Shown here: piece by piece, positions 3,790 through 61,154 of the stretch | Numbering within the stretch: the stretch's first letter is position 1 | Layout of the letters: each line of letters begins with the position of its first letter | Virus record (IMG/VR): IMGVR_UViG_3300035698_003810 | Location: 1-64,000 of that record | Origin: a virus | Length of the DNA stretch: 64,000 nt | Strand: one strand, 5' to 3' | The notes under the pieces: generated by a model | Told to the model about the DNA's origin: nothing | Seen by the model: only the letters and a program-made list of their open reading frames with translations | The model's database searches: none | Made by a program: the position numbers and the translations under genes

Positions 3790-3818
3790 GTCAATTTACA
3801 TATACTAATAAGAAATTG

Positions 3819-4050: not shown

Positions 4051-4062
4051 TGGAGGTTGCTA

Positions 4063-13537: not shown

Positions 13538-13572
13538 ATATGTGAAATTAAAAGTTTATTAATTAAAAAATA

Positions 13573-13592: not shown

Positions 13593-13632
13593 GATTATAA
13601 GAATTTTTTGATATTAAAATTAGGAGGTTAAA

Positions 13633-16269: not shown

Positions 16270-16283
16270 TAAGGAGTAGTGTT

Positions 16284-16982: not shown

Positions 16983-16993
16983 AAAATACATTA

Positions 16994-17001
16994 TATAAAT
17001 A
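16994..17001 (+). promoter_or_regulatory. T4-type late promoter element TATAAATA
   Basis: Exact octamer 39 bases before the next ATG in the 58-base gap; likely promoter of the hub/tape-measure operon. Confidence 0.68.
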
Positions 17002-17040
17002 TTTATGATAATGTTGAATTAATTTTATAAAGGAGATTTT

Positions 17041-17973
17041 ATGAATATGAGTACGTTACCAGAAAATGGTAATCTTGAAGATGCTGTAAATAAAAATGTA
17101 GACCCTGATGGACAAAAGGTTCTAAAAATGATGGCTCGGATGCAACAGGAAGCTGAACAGAATGTTGATAAACCAGAGTTTAACTCAGCGGTTAATTCTC
17201 CACAGACGATGCATCAAAATAGAAAAGTTGACAATGCAAATTATTGGGAAATAAAAGGATTGCCATCAGGCGGTAGATTGTATCCACCAAATACGTTGAT
17301 TGAAGCGAGACCATTAAAAGTTATTGAAGTAAAAAAATTAGCATCTATCAATGAGACAAATGCTGATTATGTTATTAATGATATAATTAGAAGATGTGTT
17401 AGAGTCAGTGGTGGTATTACAGATGTTGGTGATATTTTATTAGCAGACAAGTTGTTTATTGTTTTCTGGTTGAGAGGTACAACATATAGAGACAGTTCAT
17501 ATATAGTTGATTTTCCATGTCCTAAATGTGAAAAAAACTCAAAGTACCATTTTCAAATTAAAAATTTGGATGTTAGTTATCTTAAAGATGATTATGACCC
17601 TGAAAAATTAATTGAATTAGAAAGTGGTGATGCAATTAAATTAAGATTTTTGAAAATTACAGATGAATTTGAAATTGAAAGATTTGTAGAAATTAATCAA
17701 AAACTGTTGGGTGAAATTGATACTGAATTATTAGCATTGGCATGTATGATTGTTAGCATTAATGGTAATACGGTATCAACATTAGCAGAAAAATATAATT
17801 ACGTATTGGAATTTTCACCAAGGGATTTGTCATACGTGACAACATATCTTGATGAGTATGGAATTGGAATTGAATCAAACATGAATATCGAATGCACTGA
17901 GTGCGGAGGTGTAGTCCCAATGGGCGTAACGTTTCGTGCCGACTTCTTTCTTCCCAAATGTTCCATTAGATGA
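17041..17973 (+). CDS. Baseplate hub / tail assembly protein with zinc ribbon, 310 aa
   Basis: The pattern LPSGGRLYPPNTLIEARPLK, then a helical region with VSGGITDVGDILLADKL, FWLRGTTYRDSSY and FPCPKCEKNS, is that of the gp26-type baseplate hub proteins of T4-like phages. Four cysteines (C160, C163, C285, C288) can form one zinc ribbon. The frame ends at TGA 17971, but a second frame (+1) continues for 75 more residues across the overlap, with the slippery-looking TTC TTT C at 17944-17950; see the next entry. It lies one gene upstream of the tape-measure-like gene, the usual slot of tail assembly chaperones. Confidence 0.72.
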   Translation: MNMSTLPENGNLEDAVNKNVDPDGQKVLKMMARMQQEAEQNVDKPEFNSAVNSPQTMHQNRKVDNANYWEIKGLPSGGRLYPPNTLIEARPLKVIEVKKLASINETNADYVINDIIRRCVRVSGGITDVGDILLADKLFIVFWLRGTTYRDSSYIVDFPCPKCEKNSKYHFQIKNLDVSYLKDDYDPEKLIELESGDAIKLRFLKITDEFEIERFVEINQKLLGEIDTELLALACMIVSINGNTVSTLAEKYNYVLEFSPRDLSYVTTYLDEYGIGIESNMNIECTECGGVVPMGVTFRADFFLPKCSIR

Positions 17974-35374: not shown

Positions 35375-36217
35375 ATGGAAATTGATATTAAAGAATTGAG
35401 AAGTCGTGATATAAAAAAAAGAGAAAAAAATATTAAAGATATTGAGACATTTAAAAAATATGATATTAAAATATTGACACCATTTTATAATGTGATTGAT
35501 ACAAAGACTGAAAGGGCAATTTTAAAATTATTAGATTCAAAGACATTGAATTGTGCATGGTTATCATTACAAGGTACAGCGATTGCATATATTAGAAATA
35601 AACTTGTTAATGATGGTAACTCAGATTTACAATATCAGAAATTAAATGATGGGTTTACTCATTATTTATTTATAGATTCAGATACAGTTGTTAATGAAAA
35701 TACAGTTAAAAAATTATTATCATATGATTTGGATATAGTTGCCGGAGCATATGTTAGTAGAGAATCTGAACACTGTTATGTTGGTGGACATTTTAAATAT
35801 GAAGATGATAATATAATTGATTTTGTAAATATAGAAAAAACAACTAAAGGCTTAATTGAAGTTGATTGGATTGGTGCAGGATGTTTACTTATAAAGAAAG
35901 AAGTATTTGAAAATCTTCCATATCCTTGGTTTCATTACCCTATTATTGAAAAAATGTATAATGGGGAAAAACACACACAAATGGTATTTGAAGATGTGGG
36001 TTTTTCAATGTTAGCAAAAAAGTATGGTTATAAAATTTTTATGGATTGTGATGTTGAAGTAACACATTATGCAAGAAACTATCAAAGAGAAAATGTAACA
36101 GATTTTGAATTGCTATTTACAAATGTTAGTGATGATATGAATAAGGTATTTCAATTAATGAGAATGATGAGTTATAGAATAAATGATTTGGAAAAAAAGA
36201 AAGAGGACGATAAATAA
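35375..36217 (+). CDS. GT-A glycosyltransferase within the fibre operon, 280 aa
   Basis: DxD-type metal/nucleotide-sugar motif at FIDSDTVV (Asp101-Asp103) after a helical start and a Rossmann-like DIKILTPFYN strand (residues 29-38). Downstream WIGAGCLLIKKEVFENLPYP and FEDVGFSMLAKKYGYKIFMD match the acceptor-side block of GT2-like transferases. The gene sits inside the tail-fibre operon: the next fibre gene starts on its own stop codon. This suggests a substrate made at the same time, for example a fibre protein, but the acceptor is unknown. Confidence 0.8.
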   Translation: MEIDIKELRSRDIKKREKNIKDIETFKKYDIKILTPFYNVIDTKTERAILKLLDSKTLNCAWLSLQGTAIAYIRNKLVNDGNSDLQYQKLNDGFTHYLFIDSDTVVNENTVKKLLSYDLDIVAGAYVSRESEHCYVGGHFKYEDDNIIDFVNIEKTTKGLIEVDWIGAGCLLIKKEVFENLPYPWFHYPIIEKMYNGEKHTQMVFEDVGFSMLAKKYGYKIFMDCDVEVTHYARNYQRENVTDFELLFTNVSDDMNKVFQLMRMMSYRINDLEKKKEDDK

Positions 36218-40700: not shown

Positions 40701-42013
40701 TTAGTGGTTGTATGATAACAGCAACAACAACAGCTATAATAAATTTAGGAACGATTTCAGCTTGTTTACTTAAAGTAAATTATATTTCTCTATTTGGCCC
40801 GGAACATATACGATGGGGTGAATGTCGAGATATTAATTTGGTTGACATGTTACCATCAACATTGAATGGTACAGATACAGAAACATATCTTAAAGTTTAT
40901 CAAGATTATTTAAATGAAATGTATGCGGGAAGTTGTGGGTATACCCTTGGTGCATCAGCATTAGATACATGTGCGTGTGAAGTTTCAGCATGTCTATTAT
41001 CTGCTGTTAATAATTTTTATGAACATCAAACATATTTGAGTGGTGGAATTTCAGCGAACACTTTATACACCCCTACTGATGATGTTGAGAAAGTATTCCT
41101 TAGTAATTTTTGTCAAATACCAAAAGATAATATATCTGTTCTTGAAAAGACATATAGATTGACAGAATTGTTTGACCCGGATTTAATTCCGATTGAGTTA
41201 ATTCAATTCTATGCATCTAATCTTGGATATAAAGTTGGATTGAGTCGTGATAATGTTGGGTTAGATTTTTCTGCTGCTCAAACAACATCAGAAGAGTCAA
41301 TAAATCAAAAGAAATATTTACGTTTCATGATTAGAAATTTACCAACATGGTACAAAATTAAAACAACAAGAAACTCAGTTAAGATGATGTTGTACTCATT
41401 TGGGTTAGTTGGTGATTTTATTTATTACTTTACAAGAAATTATAGAGACCCCGATACAGGAATTGGTTTAAATAGCTTAGAATATAATGCAACTAATGGA
41501 ATCACAGTAAACACTCCAAGTGGTGGTACAGACACTTCTGGTTTTAATAACTATGTTATTAATGATAACATGACATATAGAGAACTTCAGAAATTGAAAT
41601 GTGATACATCACAATGGGAAGAATTTAAGAACAATAAAAAAGCATATTTCAATATGTTGAACGATTTACAACCGACAGGAAATAATGATTGGTTATTGAC
41701 TGATGTAAATCCTATATCGGTACAGGAAGATATTTCAAATATCCCGGATGCTTTCTTCTCATCACCCCATTTTAGATTGTGGTTTGATATTTTAGAAAGT
41801 TTAACAAATGGAAATTATACAACTGATTTACATAGACAGAAATTAATATCAGAATCAATAAAGGCAATCAAGCCAATCAATACAGTTTTTGAGGGTGTTA
41901 CAGGTGTATTTAGAACTGTAGTTGATTTATACTACTTAGCATATCCGAGAATTAGAAAACACATTTCATTATTCTCTGATGGTTATGCGGATTGGTATAT
42001 GCCTGATGTTTAA
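37715..42013 (+). CDS. Large tail protein: lectin-like N-terminus, Ig/PKD repeats, wedge-like C-terminus, 1432 aa
   Basis: Residues 1-220 look like a beta-sandwich (lectin or laminin-G style). From about 225 to 1015 there are five related Ig-like domains (pattern TLSWETSG...SAFIDNGVGW...TYTLSAFD) and four PKD-like domains (pattern AGDDQ...SYDPDG...YLWT...YTYTLTVTD). The C-terminal 400 residues are different: NNFYEHQTYL, LIPIELIQFYASNLGYKVG and KKYLRFMIRNLPTWYKIKTT resemble the tail protein I / wedge type segment that joins fibres to the baseplate. The reading is a baseplate-attached arm with a long Ig stalk. The SA dipeptide is highly abundant. Confidence 0.7.
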   Translation: MANFFEDFVASTGNFFYAAQVGYPSYRYWYIDYVKLIPTDAVAYQPGFLLVETQPELNGSLSASYVNLDPYNGCDNFIIIRYQSPTEFMGLRVNPGTLDQKGIYVSHSNPSEWQGEGNALSQGDTKLNLINSAGVAISAETWPNKTAFPLDGLITVDITSNNNYSLEWWDSDHTILYASATFIDNHIISSAGHHGFFHTTKWDANIDGWDYIMWVDGVSAVTPPTIESFSATDYVITDGDSTTLGWFVLSGDNDTIVTIDNGVGDVDLFGTSAITPGLGSHTYTISAYNDGGSVSADFGLTVLANAPTIEIFSASNTPVSAGENSTLGWITSGSSVSAFIDNGVGWITPIWEVSAGTYEVSALTATTTYTMSAFDVSDNFVTDSTTVEVTPPIISVFSADTPISAGGNSTLTWETSGSSVSAFIDNDIGWVTPVSAGTYEVSALTATTIYTLSAFDFVGNYVTDTALVVVSAVPQIVGGTFSATPNPVCSGSDYLISWETLGATSAFIDNGVGWIASSAVTSGSYGTSASLPTTYSLSAWNDLGNITSASYIQQVYYRDPVADAGSDLVFSATDTSGVSVTFNSSASYDPDGQAIATYLWTSAGTVISTSEYFTLVLSAGDYVFDLLITDGCNQSGTDSVSASVVNLIPPVAIASATPYFVNAGESFILSGQDSYDPDGAIDSYLWDLSGTFLSATDVAVHTQNTVGDYTYTLTVTDTSGLSASDTTLVHVNGIYAPSANAGDDQSHCMVSGDSVDVTLNGSDSFPSETGGTIVWYEWELSAFGVSNVSADVSAVYEISATVSDVSAFGTYEVGLVVSASNGIIDNDIMSVTINRQAIVSAGDDQTHNLSCSASFINIGLSGSSDLSGTYIWYFKDGEVTQQGQNVTREYSVGTYSAGLEIVTTAANGAVCTSDQDIINIVISANPMSIETFEFSPNFINGTSAYVWTTLSWETSGAVSATIDNNVGWLDTSAISAGSIAVSATSSITYAISAFDVSGCMITATTTAIINLGTISACLLKVNYISLFGPEHIRWGECRDINLVDMLPSTLNGTDTETYLKVYQDYLNEMYAGSCGYTLGASALDTCACEVSACLLSAVNNFYEHQTYLSGGISANTLYTPTDDVEKVFLSNFCQIPKDNISVLEKTYRLTELFDPDLIPIELIQFYASNLGYKVGLSRDNVGLDFSAAQTTSEESINQKKYLRFMIRNLPTWYKIKTTRNSVKMMLYSFGLVGDFIYYFTRNYRDPDTGIGLNSLEYNATNGITVNTPSGGTDTSGFNNYVINDNMTYRELQKLKCDTSQWEEFKNNKKAYFNMLNDLQPTGNNDWLLTDVNPISVQEDISNIPDAFFSSPHFRLWFDILESLTNGNYTTDLHRQKLISESIKAIKPINTVFEGVTGVFRTVVDLYYLAYPRIRKHISLFSDGYADWYMPDV
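38390..40755 (+). repeat. Ig-like (5) and PKD-like (4) domain repeats
   Basis: Approximate boundaries. Ig-like domains at 38390-38635, 38636-38890, 38891-39136, 39137-39385 and 40495-40755. PKD-like domains at 39391-39650, 39658-39918, 39919-40220 and 40222-40494. The second and third Ig copies are the closest pair (shared SGSSVSAFIDN and SAGTYEVSALTATT), which points to recent duplication. Confidence 0.7.
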
Positions 42014-45513: not shown

Positions 45514-46146
45514 ATGGCGTACAACGCATTTCCAAATACGTTCCATAATGATAAGTGGGTATTGACATTTAGTAATTTACCTAATGTTGGTGACCTTTCT
45601 GATATGAGATATTTTCAAAGCTATATTAAAAATTTAATATTGCCGGATTATAATATGGGAGAAATAGCTGATGTTGGCCCATTTGGATTCCAAGTAAGAC
45701 ATCCGATTGCCGGGATGAAAAAGAATACAGAGTTAAGTCAATTACAAATTGAATTTAAATTGTCGGAAGATTTATTAAACTATATGTATTTTTTCCGTTG
45801 GATAAAGGATTTGAAATATGGTAATTTAAATGAAGGTGCGTATACTGATTTAATTAGAAAGTTTACAATCAAGAAGGCCATTCTTAGTATTTTGGATAAT
45901 CAAAAGAGAACAGTTGTTAATTTATTTTTTACAGAATTATTTTTGTTAAATTTAAGTTCTCTTCAATTGACAATGGGTAGTTCAGATGAAGTTACATTTA
46001 CGTGTAATTTTAGTTATGAAGAAATTGATTATGACATTAAAGACCCATCAATTGGAAGTTCTAATCCGACAACTCCGACACTTGTTAACCCATGTGGAAC
46101 GAGTGCAGTACCTGCTACTTCAGCATCAACTGATTGGGAGATATAA
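45514..46146 (+). CDS. Third tube-fold protein (baseplate/tail tube initiator candidate), 210 aa
   Basis: Starts two bases after the previous stop. The pattern KWVLTFSNLPNVGDLSDMRY, then FQSYIKNLILPDYNMGEIAD and a late VTFTCNFSYEEIDYDI strand matches the tube-fold family (compare the tube gene at 15685). A Thr/Pro-rich tail (SNPTTPTLVNPCGTSAVPAT) follows. Its position at the end of the fibre operon, far from the tube gene, suggests a specialised tube-like adaptor such as a gp48 or gp54 analogue. Confidence 0.6.
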   Translation: MAYNAFPNTFHNDKWVLTFSNLPNVGDLSDMRYFQSYIKNLILPDYNMGEIADVGPFGFQVRHPIAGMKKNTELSQLQIEFKLSEDLLNYMYFFRWIKDLKYGNLNEGAYTDLIRKFTIKKAILSILDNQKRTVVNLFFTELFLLNLSSLQLTMGSSDEVTFTCNFSYEEIDYDIKDPSIGSSNPTTPTLVNPCGTSAVPATSASTDWEI

Positions 46147-49108: not shown

Positions 49109-49116
49109 TATAAATA
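49109..49116 (+). promoter_or_regulatory. T4-type late promoter element TATAAATA
   Basis: Exact octamer 47 bases before the next ATG. It stands immediately upstream of a terminator hairpin; initiation here would begin within the hairpin's 5' arm, so its own transcript may escape termination. Confidence 0.6.
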
Positions 49117-49143
49117 AAGGGGAAGAGTCAATCTTCCCTTTTT
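49117..49143 (+). terminator. Rho-independent terminator
   Basis: GGGAAGA (49120-49126) pairs with TCTTCCC (49132-49138) across a GTCAA loop, followed by TTTTT (49139-49143). The stem is G/C-rich in an AT-rich genome. It closes the RegA/acidic operon and separates it from the glycan island. Confidence 0.85.
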
Positions 49144-49163: not shown

Positions 49164-49868
49164 ATGATAACTACAAAAGAAAATGATGTAATCGCAATGA
49201 CAGAAGAATTTTGGTTTGGTCAAGATAAACCACTTGTGTCATGTCTAATGTTGACATACAATAGATTTGGCCCATTTAAAAAAGCACTTGAGTGTTTCCT
49301 TAAACAAATATATACCAATAAGCAATTAATAATTGTCAATTCTGGTAATAAAAGTTATAACAAAAAAGTACATAAACTTGTGACAAGATGTATGTCAGTT
49401 TGTAAAATAAAATATATACCACATGCTCCTGTGATGTCCATCGGTGAATTAAGAAATTTTGCATTGAAATATTGTGATGGTGAATACGTGATATGTTTTG
49501 ATGATGATGATATTCATCACCCAATGAGAATAGCACGTCAAATTGATTTGTGTTTAAAATCAAACATCCAAGGAACAATACTTAAGAATTTTACAGCAAA
49601 AATTGGATGGAAAGAACACAAATGTTCTATACTTCATGGGCTTGAGGGTTCACTACTATTCAAGAATCCAAAAGGTAAGATTCAGTACACTGATATGAAT
49701 CAAGGTGAGGACACCGATTTTATAAAAAAATTAAGAGATAATGAGTACAATATTGCTGTGATTGATGAAGATTTTGACACGTATAAATATATACATCACA
49801 GAACAAATACCGTGAGCAAAAAACACTTCAAAAATATGATTGAATTAAATGTTCCTGTACGAAGATAA
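49164..49868 (+). CDS. GT2-type glycosyltransferase, 234 aa
   Basis: Family-2 fold start PLVSCLMLTYNRFGPFKKAL with the nucleotide-binding strand, SIGELRNFALKYCDGEYVIC, and FDDDDIHHP with the acidic metal cluster at Asp113-Asp116. The later LEGSLLFKN and EDTDFIKKL blocks are the acceptor-side signature. Short form with one domain. First gene of the glycan island. Confidence 0.85.
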   Translation: MITTKENDVIAMTEEFWFGQDKPLVSCLMLTYNRFGPFKKALECFLKQIYTNKQLIIVNSGNKSYNKKVHKLVTRCMSVCKIKYIPHAPVMSIGELRNFALKYCDGEYVICFDDDDIHHPMRIARQIDLCLKSNIQGTILKNFTAKIGWKEHKCSILHGLEGSLLFKNPKGKIQYTDMNQGEDTDFIKKLRDNEYNIAVIDEDFDTYKYIHHRTNTVSKKHFKNMIELNVPVRR

Positions 49869-49872
49869 TTAT

Positions 49873-49901
49873 TGACTTTTGAATAAGAATTTATTATATT
49901 G
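49873..49901 (+). promoter_or_regulatory. Sigma-70-type promoter before the large glycosyltransferase
   Basis: TTGACT (-35, 49873-49878) and TATATT (-10, 49896-49901) are separated by 17 bases, the preferred spacing. Transcription would begin around 49908 and reach the TTG-start gene at 49939. This points to host-polymerase, possibly early, expression of the glycan island. Confidence 0.65.
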
Positions 49902-49938
49902 TTATAGTATATTATTAGCATATTGAATGGAGGTAAAA

Positions 49939-52900
49939 TTGAAAAAGATTGTAGTTTACACAGCGATTTTTGGGGCATATGATTCCCAATTAGTTGAGGT
50001 TGAATTTGACCGTGAAAAATTTGACTTTATTTGTTTTACAAACCAGAAGAGATTGAAGTCTAATAGTTGGGATATTAGAGTTGTTGAAGACCCTGTACCC
50101 AATGATAATCCCCGCAGTTCTTACTACTTTAAAACTAATCCTCATGATGTGTGGGAAGACCAATATGACATGTCTATTTGGATGGATTCATCTTGTAACA
50201 GAATAGATACATATAAGTTATATGAGATGGTTGAAAAATTTGATAAATTAGGCACTGCCCTTTACATCGAGAAACATCCCGGAAGAACATGTATCTATAA
50301 AGAACTCGAAGCAAACATTCATTTCAAAAAAGATGATGAAGCTGCTATGAGAGCACATGTTGAATCATATCGTAAAGAGGGTATGCCTAAAGATTTTGGT
50401 ATGGTTGAAACTGGTTTACAACTTCGTAAACATAATGCACCGGACGTTATTGAATTTCAAGAAATGCTTTGGGATGAGATGATGACCAAGACTCGTAGAG
50501 ACCAATTATCATGGACATATTGTCAATGGAAATTGGGGTTTACTAATTTTTCTTTCTTTACGTTTCAAGAAAAGATTGATGTGCTTTGGTTCCAAGACCA
50601 TCCACATAAAGTTAATCACACAGAAAAGGTTTTATTAATTGGGCCTTGGTATGGAGAGGAAAAGTACGAGCAACAATGGTCTGATTATGCAAATGGCTTT
50701 GTTGGTATGTCTCCGTTTGATACAGTCATCGTGGGATGTAGACCGGGAAGAAAAGATATTTATAAAGACATTGGGCCGGATAGATTTCTTTATGCAGACC
50801 CTGAAGGTGAAAAGAAATTAAATTTACTTAATGGTAGCCTTCCAAGATTTAATGTTAAGTCAACAGGTGAAAAAGAAATCACACAATTAAATCCTAAAGA
50901 TGAACTTTTTAATAGATTTAAATTGTATGGTGGTTCTGTTCATTTTAAAATTCATATCATTGGATGGAAAGCTGGAAGATATATTGAGAGGGCATTGAAA
51001 TCTTTACTTAGCCAGAATCATAAAAATTGGCAAGCACAGATTGTATTAGACCCGGATGATACAAATGAAACATATGAAATTGCAAAACAATATGAATCAG
51101 ATAAGATAAAGGTTCATCTTAACAAAGAGAGACAAGGTCCAACTCAGAACCACATTGACTGTGTTGCAATGATGAAACCTAATGATGATGATGTCTGTGT
51201 TACATTAGATGCAGATGATTGGTTTGCACATGATTACGCATTGACAGTAATAGAAAATGAATATTTAAAAGACCCGAAAACATTAATCACACACGGTAGT
51301 TGGATTGACTATCCGAAACCGGGTTCATTACAACCGAACAATTCACAACCATATTCACCAACTGAATTTGATAATATAAGAAAAACAATTTTCAAAGCCT
51401 CTCATGTTAGAACAGTAAAGTATAAAATTTGGAAACATATCACAAAAGATTATTTAACACACTCAGAAACTGGTAAATATTATGATAGTTGTGGTGATGT
51501 TGCTATTATGTTTACGGCATTAGAGATGGCGGGTTATGATAGAGTTAAATTTATTCCTGACATTCTTTATGTTTACAATAGAGAAACTGGTATGAATGAA
51601 GATAAGGTATCCCAATCACAACAGTCTAATATGATGGATATCATGAATAAGAAACCACACACATTATATAAAGAAACAGTTGATGATGGAATTGATTCTA
51701 TTGTGTTTAGTAAAGACCGTGCATGTCAGCTTGATGCATTTTTAAGAAGTATGAAAGAACACCATAATAATTTAGATGAATGTAGTGTAACAATTCTTTA
51801 TACATATTCTAATGATGAATTTAAAAGTGGGTATGATTTACTTATTAAAAAATTCCCTGAGTTTTCATTTGTAAAAGAAGACAATTTTAAAAGTGATTTG
51901 ATAAATATATTTGCCAACGGTGTTCATGAGTATGTTCAATTTTTTGTTGATGATAATGTATGGAAAAATGATTTTAGTTTTGATGATGTTGAATTCGATA
52001 TGTTTAAAATGAATGATAATATATTATCATTATCATTAAGACTGTATAAGGGAATAACATATTGTCATCCAATGAATAAAGAAACAACACCACCATCGAA
52101 TTTAAATAGCTTGAATAAATATAATATAAATGTGTGGGATTGGAATGGTGCAGATGGGGATTGGGGTTATCCAATGTCAGTTGATGGTAATATTTTTAGA
52201 AAGAAAAATATTGAATTATATGTAAATAGTTTTATGTATAATAATCCAAATACATTTGAAGCTACTATGGCTTCAAGTCCTCCGGTAACATTTTCAAAGA
52301 TGATTTGTTATTCTGATTCAAAGATTTTAAATATCCCAATGAATAGAGTTCAAAACACATTTCAAAATCCGTGTGGTGATGTTGATACAAAGATGTTGAA
52401 TGATAAATTACTGTCTGGTGAAGTTATAAATATTAGTAAAGTTGATGGTTTTCAAAACTCAGCATGTCATCAAGAAATTGAATTGGACTTTATGAAAAAT
52501 GTTAAATTAGTTATTAGACAGCCTTGGGGTGGTCTTGGAGATAATCTTCAGTTCTCAACTCTACCGGAAATGTTTTATAAAAAATATGGTATGAAGTGTG
52601 TATATATTCATAATGATAATGCATATAGAAATCCTGAGATTAAACAATTGGTTTGGGATATGAATCCATACATTGCCGGATTTACTTCTGATAACGATGG
52701 TGTGATTGACCTTAAAGCTGATAATGACCTTGATGGATTTTGGACGGAGAAAATTGAATCTCATTATGGAGTAGAGCCAACAAACAAATCACCTAAGATT
52801 TATTATGAATATGATGAATCAAAGAAAGAACAATTTAAAGATAAAGTGGTTATTGATGTTTCATTTGATTCTCGTAATAGTTCAATGACATCTGATACAG

Positions 52901-53232
52901 TTCGCAATAACATATTAAAATTTTTCTCAGAATTTAAAACAGACAAAGAAGTGTATTTAATTAAATTTGGTGAACAGGTTTCTTATTCTGAATTTGATAT
53001 TATAAGTCATATTAATTGTCCTAATGTCAAAGAGTATAAAGTAAAAGATATATATGATTATTGTGATTTGATGAAGTACTGTGATACACTGATTTGTACA
53101 TTCTCTGGACAAGCGGTACTTGCATCTGCTGTTAAAGGTGATAGTGAGACACCAAGGATTGTTACGTTCCCACGGGATGATTGTTATAATGGTAAATTGT
53201 ACATTTTTAATAATGCCGAATATATAGTTTAA
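49939..53232 (+). CDS. Four-domain glycosyltransferase, 1097 aa
   Basis: TTG 49939 is five bases after GGAGG (49929-49933); the in-frame ATG at 49927 would overlap that site. Four parts are visible. Domain 1 (1-215) has VVYTAIFGAYDSQ and SIWMDSSCNR, of the DUF616-like type. Domain 2 (about 336-571) is a GT2: KIHIIGWKAGRYIERALKSL, LDADDWF. Domain 3 (about 580-835) begins SIVFSKDRACQLDAFLRSMK with FVDDNVW as the acidic motif. Domain 4 (about 852-1097) looks GT-B-like: GGLGDNLQFSTLPEMFYKKY, and CDTLICTFSGQAVLASAVKG. It probably builds several linkages of one glycan. Confidence 0.78.
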   Translation: MKKIVVYTAIFGAYDSQLVEVEFDREKFDFICFTNQKRLKSNSWDIRVVEDPVPNDNPRSSYYFKTNPHDVWEDQYDMSIWMDSSCNRIDTYKLYEMVEKFDKLGTALYIEKHPGRTCIYKELEANIHFKKDDEAAMRAHVESYRKEGMPKDFGMVETGLQLRKHNAPDVIEFQEMLWDEMMTKTRRDQLSWTYCQWKLGFTNFSFFTFQEKIDVLWFQDHPHKVNHTEKVLLIGPWYGEEKYEQQWSDYANGFVGMSPFDTVIVGCRPGRKDIYKDIGPDRFLYADPEGEKKLNLLNGSLPRFNVKSTGEKEITQLNPKDELFNRFKLYGGSVHFKIHIIGWKAGRYIERALKSLLSQNHKNWQAQIVLDPDDTNETYEIAKQYESDKIKVHLNKERQGPTQNHIDCVAMMKPNDDDVCVTLDADDWFAHDYALTVIENEYLKDPKTLITHGSWIDYPKPGSLQPNNSQPYSPTEFDNIRKTIFKASHVRTVKYKIWKHITKDYLTHSETGKYYDSCGDVAIMFTALEMAGYDRVKFIPDILYVYNRETGMNEDKVSQSQQSNMMDIMNKKPHTLYKETVDDGIDSIVFSKDRACQLDAFLRSMKEHHNNLDECSVTILYTYSNDEFKSGYDLLIKKFPEFSFVKEDNFKSDLINIFANGVHEYVQFFVDDNVWKNDFSFDDVEFDMFKMNDNILSLSLRLYKGITYCHPMNKETTPPSNLNSLNKYNINVWDWNGADGDWGYPMSVDGNIFRKKNIELYVNSFMYNNPNTFEATMASSPPVTFSKMICYSDSKILNIPMNRVQNTFQNPCGDVDTKMLNDKLLSGEVINISKVDGFQNSACHQEIELDFMKNVKLVIRQPWGGLGDNLQFSTLPEMFYKKYGMKCVYIHNDNAYRNPEIKQLVWDMNPYIAGFTSDNDGVIDLKADNDLDGFWTEKIESHYGVEPTNKSPKIYYEYDESKKEQFKDKVVIDVSFDSRNSSMTSDTVRNNILKFFSEFKTDKEVYLIKFGEQVSYSEFDIISHINCPNVKEYKVKDIYDYCDLMKYCDTLICTFSGQAVLASAVKGDSETPRIVTFPRDDCYNGKLYIFNNAEYIV

Positions 53233-53243
53233 CGAGAGGTGTA

Positions 53244-53753
53244 ATGGATTTATTAGGTTATAAAGGCAGAACATACCCCAAGTTTCAAGAACAGGGGTAT
53301 GCTTCACAGTTCGCAATTCCCTTTGCAAAGCACTTTTGTAAAGGTATTGGGTATGACATAGGTTGTCATAAAATAGAATGGTCATTTCCGGGGTCAATTC
53401 CTGTAGATTTAATTTTGGATAATAATGAATATGATGCATTTAATTTGCCGGAAGAGCAGGTAGATTATATTTATTCAAGCCATTGTCTTGAACATTTGGA
53501 TTCATGGGTTAATGCTATTGACTATTGGAAAACTAAATTAAAAGATGGTGGTATTTTGTTTCTTTATCTTCCACATTATAATCAAGAATATTGGAGACCG
53601 TGGAATAATAAAAAACATAAACATGTAATGACATCGGAAGGTGTTGTTGATTTTATAATAGACAGAAGATTTATTCACACATTTAATAGTGAACGGGATT
53701 TAAATGATTCGTTTATGGTTGTATGTGAAAGGAGTTATGAAAATGAGTATTGA
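53244..53753 (+). CDS. SAM-dependent methyltransferase, 169 aa
   Basis: Class I methyltransferase pattern: GIGYDIGCHKIEW around residues 35-47 (motif I), then VDYIYSSHCLEHLDSWVNAI (motif with HCLEH) and KDGGILFLYLPHYN. It is short and resembles the Methyltransf_11 type found in polysaccharide clusters. It overlaps the next gene by 11 bases. Confidence 0.78.
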   Translation: MDLLGYKGRTYPKFQEQGYASQFAIPFAKHFCKGIGYDIGCHKIEWSFPGSIPVDLILDNNEYDAFNLPEEQVDYIYSSHCLEHLDSWVNAIDYWKTKLKDGGILFLYLPHYNQEYWRPWNNKKHKHVMTSEGVVDFIIDRRFIHTFNSERDLNDSFMVVCERSYENEY

Positions 53754-54495
53754 TATTTTTATTACGTGTGCAAAAAAAGATTACATTAAATTACCATATT
53801 GTATTGCTTCAATTGAAAGAAACATAGCTGATATTGATGAAATTCATATTGCATCACCCACTGAAATTAAAATCGATGGTGTGATTTGGCATAATGAAAA
53901 TGATATTTTGCATGTTGATAAAACAAAAATAAAACACAGACCAAATTGGGTGTTTCAACAATTGATAAAATTATTTCAAACCGTAACTAAAAACGATTTC
54001 TATTTGACTATTGATTCTGATACTATAATTAATAGACCATTGAAATTGTTTACTGATGAAGGTAAGCCAATTTTATATGCCGGGATTCAACAATACCATG
54101 CCCCATATTTTAAATTTATGAAAGAAGTTTTTAATTTGGATAAAGTTATCAAAGAATCTTTTATTACAGATATGAATTTTTTTAATAGAAATATAATAAA
54201 TGAAATGCTCGTTAATAACAATTATACAGTTGAATCATTTTTAGAAAAATTATATGAAGTAACAAAACCAAGCGAATGTTATATTGGTGAGCCGGAACTG
54301 TATGGTAATTATGTTGTGGAACATCATATGGATATGTATACGATTAGACAATTGAAAATGAAAATGTCTGGTAAAGAAATTAATAATGCTAATGATGTAG
54401 TTTGGTGTAATCAAGAAATTGAAACTGGTATTAAAGTTATGAAAAATCTTGATTATGATACATTCTCTATGCACTCATGGGTATTGGGGGATTAA
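53743..54495 (+). CDS. GT-A glycosyltransferase, 250 aa
   Basis: ATG 53743 lies eight bases after GGAG (53731-53734) and is preferred over ATG 53737 and the longer frame. Fold: IDIFITCAKKDYIKLPYCIA, a nucleotide-sugar region, then YLTIDSDTIINRPLKLF with the DxD at Asp91-Asp93. Later GEPELYGNYVVEHH and MHSW are of the DUF6492-like type. It belongs to the island and overlaps the preceding methyltransferase. Confidence 0.75.
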   Translation: MSIDIFITCAKKDYIKLPYCIASIERNIADIDEIHIASPTEIKIDGVIWHNENDILHVDKTKIKHRPNWVFQQLIKLFQTVTKNDFYLTIDSDTIINRPLKLFTDEGKPILYAGIQQYHAPYFKFMKEVFNLDKVIKESFITDMNFFNRNIINEMLVNNNYTVESFLEKLYEVTKPSECYIGEPELYGNYVVEHHMDMYTIRQLKMKMSGKEINNANDVVWCNQEIETGIKVMKNLDYDTFSMHSWVLGD

Positions 54496-55350
54496 ATGAA
54501 TTTAGTTTTAATACACATTGGTGATACGTTGCCTTCGTATGTTAGTGATACAATAGAACAGGCAAGAAAGTTTTATGATGGTGATTTGTATTTTGTAAAA
54601 TCTAAAGATTGTAAAATTTCACATTGGGATAATATCATAGAGATTGATTATGAATCATTACTTGACCATCCGAGAGTAAAACAGTTTAAAGATATTTCTA
54701 CACTAAAAGGTTTTTGGGGTGTGACGTGTGAACGATTTATTATATTAGAAGCCTTGATGGAAAAATTAAATTTGGATACAGTTTTTCATATTGAAAATGA
54801 TGTTACTATTTACAATGACCCGAATAATTTGTTGCCATATGTTTCATCATTTTGTAAAGACGCGGTTGTTGTGAATCCTACTGGCCCTGAGATATCAACC
54901 GGGGCATTTGTATACGTTGATAATTTGAAAGCAATATCATTTGTAAATGAAAAATTTATTGAATTATTAAAAAACCCACAAGGGATATTAAATCGTTTGA
55001 CTGAAAAGTTTATAAGTGAAATGAAATTATTAAATATTCTTCAAACGGATTATCCAGATAAAGTAAAACATTTTCCTATATTACCACACACAGATGATTA
55101 CATTGATTTGATTTTTGATTGTGCAACATGGGGTCAATTACTTGGTGGAACACCTAATGGTGAGGTTGGTGCAGACCAACTTCAACATCATTGGATTGGT
55201 AAAGAAATGTACCCTGAAAGAAAATATAAATACTTGTGGGAAAATGATGAGAAAGGAAGACGTTGTATTTTTATTGTTGATAAATCGGGAAATAAATATA
55301 AGTTAAATAATTTACACGTTCATAGTAAACGTGTGAGGGAGTTTATGTAA
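54496..55350 (+). CDS. Glycosyltransferase-like protein, 284 aa
   Basis: Starts directly after the previous stop codon. Features: FWGVTCERFIILEALMEKL, FHIENDVTIYNDPNNL (the acidic END in the DxD position), and a C-terminal GGTPNGEVGADQLQHHWIGK. The fold is probably GT-A. The END motif and the lack of a second acidic residue make the metal site less certain. Confidence 0.7.
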   Translation: MNLVLIHIGDTLPSYVSDTIEQARKFYDGDLYFVKSKDCKISHWDNIIEIDYESLLDHPRVKQFKDISTLKGFWGVTCERFIILEALMEKLNLDTVFHIENDVTIYNDPNNLLPYVSSFCKDAVVVNPTGPEISTGAFVYVDNLKAISFVNEKFIELLKNPQGILNRLTEKFISEMKLLNILQTDYPDKVKHFPILPHTDDYIDLIFDCATWGQLLGGTPNGEVGADQLQHHWIGKEMYPERKYKYLWENDEKGRRCIFIVDKSGNKYKLNNLHVHSKRVREFM

Positions 55351-55351
55351 G

Positions 55352-56707
55352 GTGAATAGCATATGTTTGATTAATCCTCCATCACCATTTTTAATTGATG
55401 AGAAGGTATTTGTTTCAATTGGTATTTTAAGAGTAGCAACGTCATTAATAGACCATTTGTATAATGCTGATATTTTAGATTTAGCGGGTATTAAAGATTG
55501 GAAAGATAAAATTGATAATATTATTTATAAATATGATATTGTTGGTATTTCATCAACTACTCCACAAATTCCTATAGTGACAAAGATTGCCGAATATATT
55601 AAATCCAAACATAATAAACAAGTTGTGTTAGGTGGCCCACATGCAACGGTTGTTCTTGGTGCATATAAAGAGAATCCGACAGGACGTGCGTTATTAGAAC
55701 TCGATAGATTACAGAGGATATTCGATTATATAGTTTGTGGTGATGGTGAATTCGTAATTTTAGATATAATGAGAGGACACAAGACAGGGATATTGGATAG
55801 TGAAACTAATCCTGATTGGTACTTGACAAATGAAAAATATGATTCATTATCGGTTCCTATTCGTAGTTTAATTGATATAGATTCATATCATTATAAAATT
55901 GATGGCGTTAAATCTACTAATTTGATATGTCAAATGGGATGCCCGTTTGGATGTAATTTTTGTGGTGGAAGAAAATCTAAAACATTTAGACAAATAAGAA
56001 CACGAAGTATTCCATTAGTTATTAAAGAAATAGATTATCTCTACCGTGGTTGGGGGTATACAGGATTTATGTTTTATGATGATGAATTGAATGTTAATGG
56101 AAAATTATTTCTTAATTTTTTAGATGAATTGATTAAATATCAAAATAACAACAATGTTAATTTTAATTTAAGAGGATTCACACGTGCGGATTTATTGACA
56201 CAAGAGCAAGCAGATAAAATGTATGAAGCAGGGTTTAAATGGCTTCTTACTGGTTTTGAATCCGGTTCAGATAGAATGTTGTTAAATATGAATAAGAGAA
56301 ATACCGTTGAAGATAATACAAATGCTTGTATGACTGCCAGATTTGCAGGACTTAAAGTAAAGGCATTGATGTCTATTGGTCACCCGGGTGAGTCAAGTGA
56401 AACAATAAAAGAAACTAAAGATTGGGTTAAGATGGTTAAACCAGATGATGTTGATGTTACAATAATATCAACATATCCCGGTACACCATATTATGATGAT
56501 GTAACATGGGATGAAAATAAAAAGGTATGGAAATATATTAGTCCTAAAACTGGAGATATTTTGTATTCTTTGGATGTAAATTATACAAAGGATTCTGTAT
56601 TCTATAAGAGTGACCCGGACAGTTATGAATCTTTTGTCTTTACTGATAATTTGTCATGTCAAGATTTAGTTGACGAAAGAAGGCAGTTGGAGAGGGAATT
56701 AAAATGA
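55352..56707 (+). CDS. B12-binding-type radical SAM enzyme, 451 aa
   Basis: GTG 55352 follows GAGGGAG (55335-55341). N-terminal 120 residues have the cobalamin-binding-like Rossmann domain (ICLINPPSPFLIDE, VGISSTTPQIPIVTKIAEYI, VVLGGPHATVV). The radical SAM core contains CPFGCNFC with cysteines at 197, 201 and 204 for the 4Fe-4S cluster, followed by FMFYDDELNVNGK, FTRADLLTQEQADKM and GFESGSDRMLLNMNK. The final third is a helical/Asp-rich C-terminal part. In a glycan island it probably methylates or rearranges a sugar or a lipid-linked intermediate, but the substrate cannot be read from the sequence. Confidence 0.85.
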   Translation: MNSICLINPPSPFLIDEKVFVSIGILRVATSLIDHLYNADILDLAGIKDWKDKIDNIIYKYDIVGISSTTPQIPIVTKIAEYIKSKHNKQVVLGGPHATVVLGAYKENPTGRALLELDRLQRIFDYIVCGDGEFVILDIMRGHKTGILDSETNPDWYLTNEKYDSLSVPIRSLIDIDSYHYKIDGVKSTNLICQMGCPFGCNFCGGRKSKTFRQIRTRSIPLVIKEIDYLYRGWGYTGFMFYDDELNVNGKLFLNFLDELIKYQNNNNVNFNLRGFTRADLLTQEQADKMYEAGFKWLLTGFESGSDRMLLNMNKRNTVEDNTNACMTARFAGLKVKALMSIGHPGESSETIKETKDWVKMVKPDDVDVTIISTYPGTPYYDDVTWDENKKVWKYISPKTGDILYSLDVNYTKDSVFYKSDPDSYESFVFTDNLSCQDLVDERRQLERELK

Positions 56708-57528
56708 ATAAAGATTGGGTAAAGTCATTTAGTCGAGATGATTTTGTTGATGGAGATGGGTTTGAAAATATTGCAAAAGACTTAGGAATAACATACACAG
56801 AAAGTCATAATTTAAAACATGTAATAGATAATGAAATTATTTTATCTCATAATGGGGATGCATGTGTATTGCCAGAGGGTGTTAATATAATAAGAACAGG
56901 CGAATCAAGAGTTGGTATTGATTTTAATTGGTTAAATATTCCTGAAAAATTAAAAGTATTATTCTCATTAAATGTTGACGTTAAGGATGATAGAATATAT
57001 TATTTGCCAGTTGGGTTAGAAAGAAAACGGTGGAATCCCCAACAGAAAAAGCAGGAAAATTTATTCAATATGATGAATACAGATATCGAACCATCTAAAT
57101 TGGTTTATTTGAATATAGCAGCGGGGACAAATATACAATCAAGACCTAAATTAATTGAAGTAATGAAAGATAAATCTTGGTGTACAAATGATAATCGTGG
57201 TAATGGTTCTGATTATATGAATTTTATAACTAATATAAAAGAACACAAATTTGTATTTTCACCTGATGGTAATTCATTAGAAGGTCATAGAACATGGGAA
57301 ACATTATATTTGGGTAGAATACCAATCATAGAACGTCATGTGTTTACGGAATATTTTGCTGAACGCTTACCGTTACTTATTGTTGATAATTGGGAAGATG
57401 TTACTGAAGAATTTCTTAATGATAAATATAATGAAATGATAAATAAAGAGTGGGATTGGGATTTGTTAAAAAATTCATATTGGAAAACATATATAAGCGG
57501 AGTTATTGATAATGTTAAACAAAAATAG
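56704..57528 (+). CDS. Exostosin-like glycosyltransferase, copy A, 274 aa
   Basis: Overlaps the radical SAM gene by four bases (ATGA). Domain: SFSRDDFVDGDGFENIAKDL at the N-terminus and the C-terminal HKFVFSPDGNSLEGHRTWET then LYLGRIPIIERHVFTEYFAE, which resembles the nucleotide-sugar site of GT47/exostosin-type transferases. Paralogue of the gene at 58177, with a methyltransferase between them. Confidence 0.7.
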   Translation: MNKDWVKSFSRDDFVDGDGFENIAKDLGITYTESHNLKHVIDNEIILSHNGDACVLPEGVNIIRTGESRVGIDFNWLNIPEKLKVLFSLNVDVKDDRIYYLPVGLERKRWNPQQKKQENLFNMMNTDIEPSKLVYLNIAAGTNIQSRPKLIEVMKDKSWCTNDNRGNGSDYMNFITNIKEHKFVFSPDGNSLEGHRTWETLYLGRIPIIERHVFTEYFAERLPLLIVDNWEDVTEEFLNDKYNEMINKEWDWDLLKNSYWKTYISGVIDNVKQK

Positions 57529-58177
57529 TATTGACGAAATTTATAAAAAACTCGATATTCCTAAATATGATAAACCACTATTAGAATATAATAATGGTAA
57601 TTGGAAATGGGAGAATAAAGATTTCTCAAGAGTACCAACTTTAATTGAATTTAGAAAAATGGTTGATGAATTAAAATTATCATCTGAAAAAATGTTAGTT
57701 ATAAATGGTACAGGAGACCCCGAATTAGAATTCATTCCAACTAAAGAAGTTAAACATGGTGTTTATATTCATGAACCGGAATTGTATGATTTGCATACAA
57801 TGGATTTGGATGAAAAGGATTATGATTTTTTAATGTGTAATCAAACATTAGAACATGTTTATAATCCTTTTGTTGCATTAAAAACTATGAATAAACATTT
57901 GAGGATGGGTGGCTATTGCTACATTACAGTTCCTTGTAATAATATTCCTCATGATACACCGATGCATTTTTATACAGGATTTACAGCCGTTGGATTAGGA
58001 ACCTTTTTTGTTGAAGGAGGATTTGAAATTATTAAGTTAGGACAATGGGGAAATTATAAGGCAGTTGAAACTATGTTTACAGATGATTGGGCAGACTATA
58101 GAAAATCAAGTTGGAATAATGAAGAGAAATGTCCCATAACAAGTTGGTGTTTAGGAAGAAAAATTGAGGAGGTATAA
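57512..58177 (+). CDS. SAM-dependent methyltransferase, 221 aa
   Basis: ATG 57512 is nine bases after GGAG (57499-57502). Overlaps the previous gene by 17 bases. The class I fold is weaker: VINGTGDPELEF as motif I is unusual (GTGD rather than GxGxG), followed by YDFLMCNQTLEHVYNPFVAL with the TLEH motif and HLRMGGYCYITVPCN. Possibly an FkbM or Methyltransf_11 relative. Confidence 0.7.
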   Translation: MLNKNSIDEIYKKLDIPKYDKPLLEYNNGNWKWENKDFSRVPTLIEFRKMVDELKLSSEKMLVINGTGDPELEFIPTKEVKHGVYIHEPELYDLHTMDLDEKDYDFLMCNQTLEHVYNPFVALKTMNKHLRMGGYCYITVPCNNIPHDTPMHFYTGFTAVGLGTFFVEGGFEIIKLGQWGNYKAVETMFTDDWADYRKSSWNNEEKCPITSWCLGRKIEEV

Positions 58178-58998
58178 TGGATTACAGGTGGTCAACATTT
58201 AGTCAAGATGATTTTATTGACGGTGATGGATTTGAAAATATTGCAAAGGAATTAGGAATTACATATTGTGAAGGTAGAGATATTAATGCTATAGATAACG
58301 AATATGTTTTATATCATAATGGTGATGCTTGTGTCTTACCTGTTGGTGTTGATAGAAGACCACTTGGTGAGCATCGAGGATATGATTTATTTTGGGAAAA
58401 TATACCGGATAAATTAAAATTATTCTTTTCACAAAATGTTGATGTTGACGATGACCGTATTGTGTGTTTACCTATCGGACTTGAAAGAAGCAGGTGGAAA
58501 CAAATGTTTCGTGTTGATAAACATGAACGATTACTTAATATGATGACACAAGATGTTGAAAAAAGTGGATTAGTTTATTTAAATGTCAACCCAACTACAA
58601 ATCGTATATCAAGACCTAAATTAATTGAAATAATGAAAGATAAACCTTGGTGTACAAACGAACTTCGCCCGAATGGGTTTGAATATGATAACTATCTACA
58701 TCAAATGAAATCACATAAATTTGTTTTCTGTCCAGATGGTAATGGAATAGATTGTCATAGAACATGGGAAGCACTTTATGTTGGTTCATATCCTATTGTA
58801 GAACGTCACGTGTATGCAGAAAAATTTGCAAAGTATCTTCCAATATTGGTAGTTGATAATTGGGACGATGTTACTGAAGAACTTCTTAATAAAACATATG
58901 GGGAGTTTTATAATACTTGGTGGGATTGGAATATGTTATCGATGTCTTATTGGAAAAAGTTTATTACAGAAAAGGTGGAAGGTAATGATACGAACTAA
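58177..58998 (+). CDS. Exostosin-like glycosyltransferase, copy B, 273 aa
   Basis: Starts in the stop codon of the methyltransferase (TAATG). It is a clear paralogue of 56704: STFSQDDFIDGDGFENIAKE, LPIGLERSRW against LPVGLERKRW, and HKFVFCPDGNGIDCHRTWEA against HKFVFSPDGNSLEGHRTWET. The two copies differ in side loops, so they may act on different acceptors. Confidence 0.7.
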   Translation: MDYRWSTFSQDDFIDGDGFENIAKELGITYCEGRDINAIDNEYVLYHNGDACVLPVGVDRRPLGEHRGYDLFWENIPDKLKLFFSQNVDVDDDRIVCLPIGLERSRWKQMFRVDKHERLLNMMTQDVEKSGLVYLNVNPTTNRISRPKLIEIMKDKPWCTNELRPNGFEYDNYLHQMKSHKFVFCPDGNGIDCHRTWEALYVGSYPIVERHVYAEKFAKYLPILVVDNWDDVTEELLNKTYGEFYNTWWDWNMLSMSYWKKFITEKVEGNDTN

Positions 58999-59692
58999 TT
59001 ATATTGGTAGAGTTGGAAACAATATGTTTCAGTATGTATTCAATAGAATGCTTGCTGAACGATGTAATCTTTACTTTGAAGAAACTATAACACATCCATA
59101 TTGGAAAGATTGTTCATCTAAAAATTTTCCTATTGAAGTTATTCCGTATAATAATGATGGAAAAGTTAAATTGAAACATGAAGATATGGTACAGACTGCC
59201 GGATATTATCAAGACCCCCGAATATATGATGCAAATACAAAACTAATACGGTCGTTTTTTAAATATGATATAAATAAAAGAAATCACCAATCAGTAACAG
59301 CGCACATTAGATTAAAAGATTATTATGAATTTGGTAAAGAGGGTGTTGTGATACACCCGGAGTGGTACACTAAGATTTTTAAAATGTTGGGTTGTGATGC
59401 TGACTATGTAACATTGTATATTGTTTCCGATAATATCAATGATGCATATATGGATAATTTTAAAGAGTTTAATCCTAAATTTATATCTGGAACACCAAAA
59501 GAAGATTTTCAATTTATTATGAATTCAGATATAACTGTTGTTGGGAATAGTTCTTTTTCTTGGTGGGCATCATGGCTTAGTGATGCATCACAGATATATA
59601 CATTCAAGCCTTGGATATATAGAGATGATAATAGAGAATATAATCTGTCTCGTATGGATAGGGCAATAAGAGTCGATGGAAAATTTTTATAA
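58985..59692 (+). CDS. GT11-like alpha-1,2-fucosyltransferase, 235 aa
   Basis: ATG 58985 follows GGTGGAAGG closely and overlaps the previous gene by 14 bases; the longer in-frame extension is ignored. Signature GRVGNNMFQYVFNRMLAE (8-25) is the GT11 donor motif, and the C-terminal VVGNSSFSWWASWLSDASQI is the matching conserved block. GT11 enzymes add fucose in alpha-1,2 linkage, here presumably to a surface glycan; the donor specificity is a family expectation. Confidence 0.85.
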   Translation: MIRTNYIGRVGNNMFQYVFNRMLAERCNLYFEETITHPYWKDCSSKNFPIEVIPYNNDGKVKLKHEDMVQTAGYYQDPRIYDANTKLIRSFFKYDINKRNHQSVTAHIRLKDYYEFGKEGVVIHPEWYTKIFKMLGCDADYVTLYIVSDNINDAYMDNFKEFNPKFISGTPKEDFQFIMNSDITVVGNSSFSWWASWLSDASQIYTFKPWIYRDDNREYNLSRMDRAIRVDGKFL

Positions 59693-59705
59693 AGGAGTTA
59701 ATGTT

Positions 59706-60275
59706 GTGAGAGAACAAGTTGAGGTAAATTTTAATAGAAGTCATCAGTTAGGACAAATGGGTGCCGATGAACGTGAGGCAATGTATAATCTTGTTATGGG
59801 GGTTAATCCAAAACATATATTTGAAATTGGTACATGGATGGGTGGTGGTAGTACATACATACTTGCATCAGCACTTTACAATTTGGATTGTGGTGGTAAA
59901 TTACATACGGTTGAATCACATAAAGGTGCATTTAATCACGCAATACGTTTTTATGGTACATATGCCGATTTAATGCCGTTGGAACCATATGTTGATTTTA
60001 ATTTAGGAAGTAGTACTGACATTTATGGTAAGATGTTAAAGGATTATGAATCAATTGAGATGGTTCTTTTTGATGGTGCTGATGATGACCAGAGTACATT
60101 AGATGAATGGAATTTATTTAAAGATAAATTTAAAACTGGTACTATTGTTTTATGTCATGATTGGAAGACTAAAAAGGCTGATTTCATCAAGGATTTTTTA
60201 TTAAATGAAGATGAATGGCAAAATATATTCATTATGGATACACAAACTGGTTTTGCTGCATTTAAAAAGAAATAA
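59706..60275 (+). CDS. SAM-dependent methyltransferase (Methyltransf_24-like), 189 aa
   Basis: GTG 59706 is preferred because AAAGGAG ends eight bases before it; the in-frame ATG at 59676 overlaps the previous gene. Motif I is IFEIGTWMGGGSTYI (38-52), followed by HTVESHKG, VLFDGADDDQSTLDEW and a final C-terminal strand. It ends the island and is followed by an 80-base gap with a late-promoter-like element. Confidence 0.8.
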   Translation: MREQVEVNFNRSHQLGQMGADEREAMYNLVMGVNPKHIFEIGTWMGGGSTYILASALYNLDCGGKLHTVESHKGAFNHAIRFYGTYADLMPLEPYVDFNLGSSTDIYGKMLKDYESIEMVLFDGADDDQSTLDEWNLFKDKFKTGTIVLCHDWKTKKADFIKDFLLNEDEWQNIFIMDTQTGFAAFKKK

Positions 60276-60292
60276 CAGATTGATAGAAAATA

Positions 60293-60300
60293 CATAAATA
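60293..60300 (+). promoter_or_regulatory. Late-promoter-like element CATAAATA
   Basis: One mismatch from TATAAATA; the sequence CATAAATACTATTATATG is similar to that before the capsid gene (TATAAATACTATTAACG). It lies 55 bases before the next ATG. Confidence 0.45.
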
Positions 60301-60355
60301 CTATTATATGTCAATTATGTAGTATTTAAATATTTCATCAGGGGGAGGATTTGTA

Positions 60356-60752: not shown

Positions 60753-61154
60753 ATGAAAGTTCTTATTGTAGAGGATAGTTTAGGGTTAGTTAATGTTTAC
60801 GAACATTTAATCGAAAATATTATTAATAAAATCACACCCGAAGAAGATTTACAAATTATATCAATAGTAAATTATAATGAATTTATTTATTTTAAAAATG
60901 TAGATTTTGATTTAGTTATACTGGATTGGAATATTATTGGTGGCACGTCAAGACAAATAATTGAAGAGGGATACACCAACATGAAGTGTGTTATTTTCAT
61001 TACTGGGTATGCAAACAATAAACAAGTTCAAATGATGTCAGAGAAATTTTCTATTCCAATTATATCAAAACCAACCACAGAATTTGAGATTTCATCAATG
61101 TTAGAAAAGGCAGTGGTGTCAATTCATTCTAATTTACCATATGCTATTGCATAA
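60753..61154 (+). CDS. Stand-alone response-regulator receiver domain, 133 aa
   Basis: All conserved receiver residues are present: Glu7-Asp8 (VEDS) and the phospho-acceptor Asp58 in LVILDWN, the Thr84 switch in FITGYA and Lys106 in ISKP. There is no output domain. Phage-encoded CheY-like domains could divert a host histidine kinase or phosphorelay, or bind a flagellar or signalling partner. Immediately after the membrane gene (13 bases), possibly one unit. Confidence 0.85.
   Translation: MKVLIVEDSLGLVNVYEHLIENIINKITPEEDLQIISIVNYNEFIYFKNVDFDLVILDWNIIGGTSRQIIEEGYTNMKCVIFITGYANNKQVQMMSEKFSIPIISKPTTEFEISSMLEKAVVSIHSNLPYAIA

What the first reader, a model, noticed from the sequence alone, without database searches (positions are those of the whole stretch)
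49164..60275. Eleven-kilobase glycan-modification island in a phage late region
At least seven genes with glycosyltransferase features, three methyltransferases and a radical SAM enzyme lie in one block with overlapping starts. The block includes a GT11 fucosyltransferase, two exostosin-like paralogues and a four-domain enzyme. No sugar-nucleotide synthesis genes are visible, so host precursors are probably used. Possible acceptors are host surface glycan (superinfection exclusion or receptor change), phage DNA bases, or virion proteins.
Basis: partly seen in the sequence, partly recalled or inferred. Interest (0 to 1): 0.7.

Follow-up and report, generated by a model that had tools for sequence, protein, structure and literature searches.

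The report
Phage late operon for building glycans
An uncultured large T4-related virus of bacteria carries a self-contained, probably late-expressed block of eleven enzymes that appears to build and methylate a complex sugar chain, probably to coat its own particles or else its host's surface; such islands are known, but this one has an unusual fused multi-domain sugar transferase and a radical enzyme of an unnamed family.

Summary
The block is real: eleven adjacent + strand genes (49164-60275) hold seven glycosyltransferase (GT)-like genes with nine or ten GT-like domains, three methyltransferases and a B12-type radical-SAM enzyme. It lies in an 84.5 kb fragment of an uncultured T4-superfamily phage whose relatives reach 224-264 kb. 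It opens with a T4-type late promoter (TATAAATA, 49109) fused to a terminator-like hairpin, so it is probably transcribed late; two relatives have the same unit with different stems. The nearest relative has the same island at the same place under purifying selection, but with a domain swapped in the fused GT, no radical-SAM gene, and a GDP-mannose dehydratase added beside regA. Other relatives carry GDP-fucose synthase, in or outside their islands, so 'host precursors only' is weakened. Two DNA-base modification pathways are absent from 224-264 kb relatives, so DNA is an unlikely acceptor. Best reading: a cytosolic glycan assembly line, acceptor slightly more likely virion protein than host surface glycan; that choice is inference. 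Comparable islands are published (P-SSM2, S-SCSM1, pelagimyophages): a new variant of a known kind.

The parts
49109..49142 (+). T4-type late promoter TATAAATA (49109-49116) fused to an 11-bp hairpin plus T-run (49116-49142): left boundary of the unit
   Evidence: same unit with different stems at L144:12364 and L145:4502
49164..49868 (+). GT2 glycosyltransferase (W49), DDDD motif
   Evidence: Pfam PF00535 4.3e-15
49927..53232 (+). 1101-aa fused glycosyltransferase (W50): TOD1/MUCI70 (46-215), GT2 (351-474), GT-A-like domain (589-857), unassigned C-terminal domain (868-1100)
53244..53753 (+). SAM methyltransferase (W51)
   Evidence: Pfam PF13489 3.2e-10
53737..54495 (+). DUF6492 GT-A-like protein (W52), DSD motif; fused to the W50 homologue in the nearest relative
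54496..55350 (+). Putative GT-A-like protein (W53), END motif; no family match; 73-74% identical in L142
   Evidence: model too poor to use
55352..56707 (+). B12-binding-domain radical SAM enzyme (W54), CxxxCxxC intact
   Evidence: Pfam PF04055 1.4e-19, PF02310 6.7e-8; family in viruses and bacteria
56704..57528 (+). Exostosin/RXYLT1-like glycosyltransferase paralogue 1 (W55)
   Evidence: Pfam below cut-off; paralogue of W57
57506..58177 (+). SAM methyltransferase (W56)
   Evidence: Pfam PF13489 6.6e-8
58177..58998 (+). Exostosin/RXYLT1-like glycosyltransferase paralogue 2 (W57)
   Evidence: Pfam PF24785 26.4 bits, cut-off 27
58985..59692 (+). GT11 (fucosyltransferase family) glycosyltransferase (W58)
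   Evidence: Pfam PF01531 33.1 bits, cut-off 23.9; phrog_2644
59676..60275 (+). SAM O-methyltransferase-like protein (W59)
   Evidence: Pfam PF13578 5.3e-10
60290..60340 (+). Right boundary: CATAAATA plus hairpin upstream of the next gene
   Evidence: L142 has TATAAATA plus hairpin at the same place; weaker in the window (z -1.1)
35375..36217 (+). Further GT-A-like gene (phrog_1574; weak rhamnosyltransferase match) inside the tail-fibre genes; possibly related in function

Best explanation
The block is a single late transcription unit encoding a soluble, cytosolic glycan assembly line. Shown by sequence: GT-like, methyltransferase and radical-SAM genes, intact catalytic motifs, a T4-type late promoter consensus, conserved position and purifying selection, no membrane segments. 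Inferred: the GTs, three or four of them fused in one polypeptide, add sugars in sequence to one acceptor; the GT11 adds fucose or a similar deoxysugar; the three methyltransferases O-methylate the chain; the radical-SAM enzyme makes a carbon-centred change (C-methylation, deoxygenation or epimerisation) on a sugar. The acceptor I judge most likely is a virion protein, such as the S/T-rich fibre (37715-42013) or the second tail-tube-like protein (45514-46146), so that progeny carry a fast-changing glycan coat, as chlorovirus capsids do.
For: Late promoter consensus 55 nt upstream of the first gene; TATAAATA is 29 on the + against 6 on the - strand, and 15 against 0 in non-coding DNA, mostly upstream of capsid, sheath, fibre and regA genes. 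Adjacent to fibre and tail-tube-like genes, with another GT-like gene inside the fibre genes. No transmembrane segment in 11 proteins. Same island in the nearest relative with dN well below dS. Domains of the fused GT occur as separate genes in L145 and G005 and are swapped in L142. Radical-SAM relatives sit among GTs, methyltransferases and nucleotide-sugar enzymes in viruses and in bacteria. Fucose-pathway genes occur in relatives. No thymidylate synthase or QueC in 224-264 kb relatives. Chlorovirus precedent: multidomain GTs, a methyltransferase domain and a virus-encoded GDP-fucose pathway serving a capsid glycan (PMC5408694; PMC7826918 title).
Against: No acceptor is shown. Late timing also fits a change of host surface that would keep progeny off debris. 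Published authors read similar islands as O-antigen modification (PMC7029224, PMC7824862). In other viruses radical-SAM islands are not clearly next to structural genes; replication genes also appear nearby. Bacterial relatives of the radical-SAM gene sit in glycan-type clusters, but which polymer they serve is unknown. The promoter is a consensus match, not a mapped start.
Confidence: 0.45

Rival explanations
1. The unit remodels the host's surface polysaccharide (O-antigen or capsule) late in infection, blocking co-infection or keeping progeny from sticking to debris, using the host's lipid carrier and flippase.
For: Published reading of GT islands in P-SSM2-type and pelagi-/cyanomyophages (PMC7824862; PMC7029224; PMC9602691). 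Relatives carry deoxysugar and NeuB-like genes. The radical-SAM family lies in bacterial glycan-type clusters. Hypervariable content.
Against: No flippase, polymerase, initiating transferase or any membrane protein in the unit, though the host could supply them. A late promoter leaves little time for superinfection exclusion.
Confidence: 0.4
2. The GTs glycosylate modified bases in phage DNA, as in T4.
For: Weak phrog_842 (beta-glucosyl-HMC-alpha-glucosyltransferase) match of W49, 19.6 bits. Diverse DNA glycans made by viral GTs are reported (title only, in the reference list of PMC12619734).
Against: No PF00303 (thymidylate synthase/dCMP hydroxymethylase) and no QueC in three relatives of 224-264 kb, with controls ringing; a Tet/JBP search found nothing but had no positive control. 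In T4 the DNA GT genes are not late genes, and nine or ten GT domains exceed any base glycan I know of (own knowledge).
Confidence: 0.04
3. The unit is a drifting accumulation of captured genes without a joint function.
For: Gene content differs strongly among relatives.
Against: Order and reading frames are kept in the nearest relative with dN/dS about 0.14-0.34, like the flanks; catalytic motifs intact; the promoter-hairpin unit recurs.
Confidence: 0.04

Closest known systems
Hypervariable 'host recognition cluster' of pelagi- and cyanomyophages (PMC7029224)
   Same: T4-superfamily; variable island in or next to the structural region; many GTs beside fibre genes
   Different: That island is defined between VrlC and gp14 and contains the fibre genes; here the island follows fibres and regA, starts at its own late promoter-hairpin and has a fused multi-domain GT and a radical-SAM gene (the two were not compared gene by gene)
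P-SSM2 'LPS biosynthesis' 15-gene cluster and S-SCSM1 'cell wall' genes (PMC7824862, PMC9602691)
   Same: T4-like phages, multiple GT families, fucosyltransferase; sugar-nucleotide genes in S-SCSM1 as in relatives here
   Different: The window fragment has no sugar-nucleotide genes; the passages read do not mention a B12 radical-SAM gene or a multi-GT fusion
Chlorovirus PBCV-1 capsid glycan system (PMC5408694, PMC7826918)
   Same: Works alike by inference: multidomain GTs, methyltransferase, virus-encoded GDP-fucose pathway
   Different: Eukaryotic algal virus; capsid acceptor proven there, not here; no homology tested; not a member
Mycobacteriophage virion glycosylation (cited in PMC12619734)
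   Same: Phage GTs; glycans on capsid and tail-tube C-termini
   Different: Far fewer GTs (own knowledge); acceptor proven there only

Membership tests
T4-superfamily phage glycan island | T4-type structural genes and gene order | tested here: met
   gp17-type terminase matches 2,551 phage records, best about 37%; RegA Pfam 78 bits; synteny with G001, G002, G003, G005
T4-superfamily phage glycan island | Cluster of several GT genes with variable content among relatives at one place | tested here: met
Pelagi-/cyanomyophage host recognition cluster | Lies between VrlC and gp14 | not tested
   Neither flanking gene was identified here
T4-type DNA glucosylation | dCMP hydroxymethylase (thymidylate synthase family) supplying the modified base | tested here: not met
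   No PF00303 match in the fragment or seven related records, three of 224-264 kb; own genome incomplete
Gtr-type serotype conversion | Membrane flippase GtrA and membrane-bound transferases | tested here: not met
   No transmembrane segment in any of 11 proteins; no such Pfam match
GT11 fucosyltransferase family | Pfam PF01531 above cut-off | tested here: met
   33.1 bits, cut-off 23.9; activity not testable here
Exostosin GT47 | Pfam PF03016 above cut-off | tested here: not met
   18.0 and 20.7 bits, cut-off 33.4; resemblance only
Named B12 radical-SAM families (PhpK, HpnJ, BchE, AprD4 and others) | NCBIfam curated cut-off | tested here: not met
   Best 115 bits against a cut-off of 600; nearest solved structure AprD4, 75 bits
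Virion protein glycosylation | Glycan shown on a structural protein | not testable with these tools
   Needs purified virions

The most novel reading that the evidence does not exclude
A lineage of large T4-related phages builds its own complex, O-methylated and radical-SAM-modified glycan in the cytosol and attaches it to the virion through a domain-swapping GT assembly line: a bacterial-virus counterpart of chlorovirus capsid glycosylation.
Probability: 0.35. Interest if true: 0.75.

Novelty: new variant of a known kind. Interest (0 to 1): 0.5.

Why it matters
If the acceptor is the virion, a phage group would rival giant algal viruses in making its own coat glycans, affecting adsorption and host range. 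In either case the island gives a testable modular GT system (fusions, swaps, insulated late promoter) and points to an unnamed B12 radical-SAM family that recurs in glycan clusters of viruses and bacteria.

Tried and rejected
Near-identity search of the island in 50,697 phage records: no match. Loci by the 495-aa gene left of the island: patterns hit many stretches, none confirmed. Loci by the whole 1101-aa protein: none. Structure of W53: pLDDT 43, discarded. Structure of W50 domain 3: only the N-terminal half is confident; it matches GT-A enzymes over about 92 columns, TM 0.26. phmmer of the GT11 against PDB: none. PHROG tally of wider radical-SAM neighbourhoods, meant to ask whether islands lie by tail genes: GTs and epimerases dominate, some replication genes, no tail signal; inconclusive. 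Tet/JBP search silent, but so was its control. My greedy ORF choice listed an antisense ORF at 3564-4256 over the prohead-protease-like gene; corrected. DNA acceptor considered and rated unlikely.

Full report
Setting. The window is 1-64000 of an 84,549-bp IMG/VR record. The gp17-type terminase finds T4-superfamily phages at no more than about 37% identity; RegA is present. The closest major-capsid relatives in IMG/VR (up to 93%) include contigs of 224, 264, 254 and 124 kb (G001, G002, G003, G005), so the record is probably a third to 40% of its genome. Synteny from portal through tail, fibres and RegA is clear.

The block. Eleven genes follow one another with gaps of at most 58 bp or with overlaps. 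Pfam supports GT2, TOD1/MUCI70 plus GT2, DUF6492 and GT11 above cut-off; the exostosin-like pair is below cut-off; W53 has no family and is called GT-like only from its END motif and setting. Domain 3 of the 1101-aa protein shares invariant SKDRA, VDD and DWGYP motifs with separate genes in relatives, and the confident half of a model matches GT-A enzymes. The C-terminal domain is unassigned. None of the eleven proteins has a membrane segment by hydropathy.

Transcription. TATAAATA, the T4 late promoter sequence (own knowledge), occurs 35 times against 14.9 expected, 29 on the + and 6 on the - strand, 15 and 0 respectively in non-coding DNA. One lies at 49109, 55 nt before the first gene, and runs into an 11-bp hairpin with a T-run (-14.4 kcal/mol, z -2.1). 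At the island's left edge L144 and L145 have the same promoter-hairpin unit with different stems (-17.8 and -19.6). Of thirteen other late promoter sites folded in the window, twelve give -4.2 kcal/mol or weaker and one gives -9.3. The likely meaning, inferred, is a terminator for upstream readthrough combined with a fresh late start. The right edge has a similar but weaker element.

Nearest relatives. Contig IMGVR_UViG_3300035698_013554 (L142/L144) is the nearest with the island. It keeps W53 (73%), one exostosin-like gene, W56, W58, W59 and the flanks W60-W63; its fused GT has W50 residues 1-855 followed by the W52 domain in place of W50's own C-terminus; W49, W51, the radical-SAM gene and one exostosin-like copy are missing; a GDP-mannose 4,6-dehydratase (566 bits, cut-off 415) sits just before RegA. 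L145 has W50 domains as separate genes plus a 750-aa protein with its N-terminal domain. Against L142, island genes show dN 0.17-0.39 and dS about 1.2-1.7, as in the flanks; dS this high is near saturation, so ratios are rough.

More distant relatives have, in the syntenic interval, other GT islands with GT2, GT11, GT10, sulfotransferases, two B12 radical-SAM genes in G003, and NeuB-like, CMP-sugar synthetase-like and GDP-fucose synthase-like genes. G001, the closest long relative, encodes GDP-fucose synthase (471 bits, cut-off 500) and dTDP-glucose dehydratase (403, cut-off 365) far from this place; its contig does not cover the island. Two contigs closest in RegA (L143, L146) end at or before the island edge.

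Radical-SAM gene. 66 IMG/VR loci and 153 stretches of bacterial genome contigs (80 kept) encode relatives at about 40-52%. Neighbours within two genes are most often GTs, methyltransferases and nucleotide-sugar enzymes in viruses and in bacteria. No NCBIfam cut-off is met. In a quick tree the window's copy lies in a group of 30 rows of which 29 are viral (support 98). Among cultured phages only two records match, both Streptomyces phage SF3, and only over 44% of the protein.

Acceptor. DNA is unlikely: PF00303 and QueC are absent from 224-264 kb relatives while controls ring. Between virion and host surface the tools do not decide. For the virion: late promoter, place beside fibre and tube-like genes, soluble enzymes, S/T-rich candidate acceptors (W41 with PKD/Ig-like domains; W44 with the most S/T/P-rich C-terminus of the window's proteins). 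For the host surface: published precedent and bacterial gene company. I give 0.45 and 0.40.

Known kind. GT islands in T4-like and jumbo phages are published (PMC7029224, PMC7824862, PMC9602691). New here, as far as the passages read show: the domain-swapping fused GT, the radical-SAM family, the insulated late start and the split GDP-fucose pathway among relatives.

Noticed in passing
window 62078; L002 4240 and 7768 (record 67239, 70767); G002 231460-257150; G005 58212-90798: Unrelated genes flanking the island share an N-terminal peptide like FxEHYFxE, resembling the T4 capsid-targeting sequence (PMC9026906); 8 hits against 0.2 expected in G002, 7 against 0.2 in G005. The pattern was written after seeing examples. 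Suggests arrays of packaged internal head proteins.
   Followed up: partly
window about 4050-4740: Prohead-protease-like gene (homologous to G001 206987-207661 and G005 16456-17124), consistent with the capsid-targeting idea; hidden in my ORF list by an antisense ORF.
   Followed up: partly
window 35375-36217: GT-A-like gene (phrog_1574) among tail-fibre genes.
   Followed up: partly
window 45514-46146: Second tail-tube-like protein with an S/T/P-rich C-terminal tail, kept in L143, L144 and L146.
   Followed up: partly
window 37715-42013: 1432-aa fibre-like protein with PKD/Ig-like domains.
   Followed up: no
window 60753-61154: Receiver-domain-like protein (Response_reg 18 bits, below cut-off), 54% conserved in L142.
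   Followed up: no
L139 (G003) 13572-15074 and 15752-17257: Two similar radical-SAM genes in one relative's glycan island.
   Followed up: no
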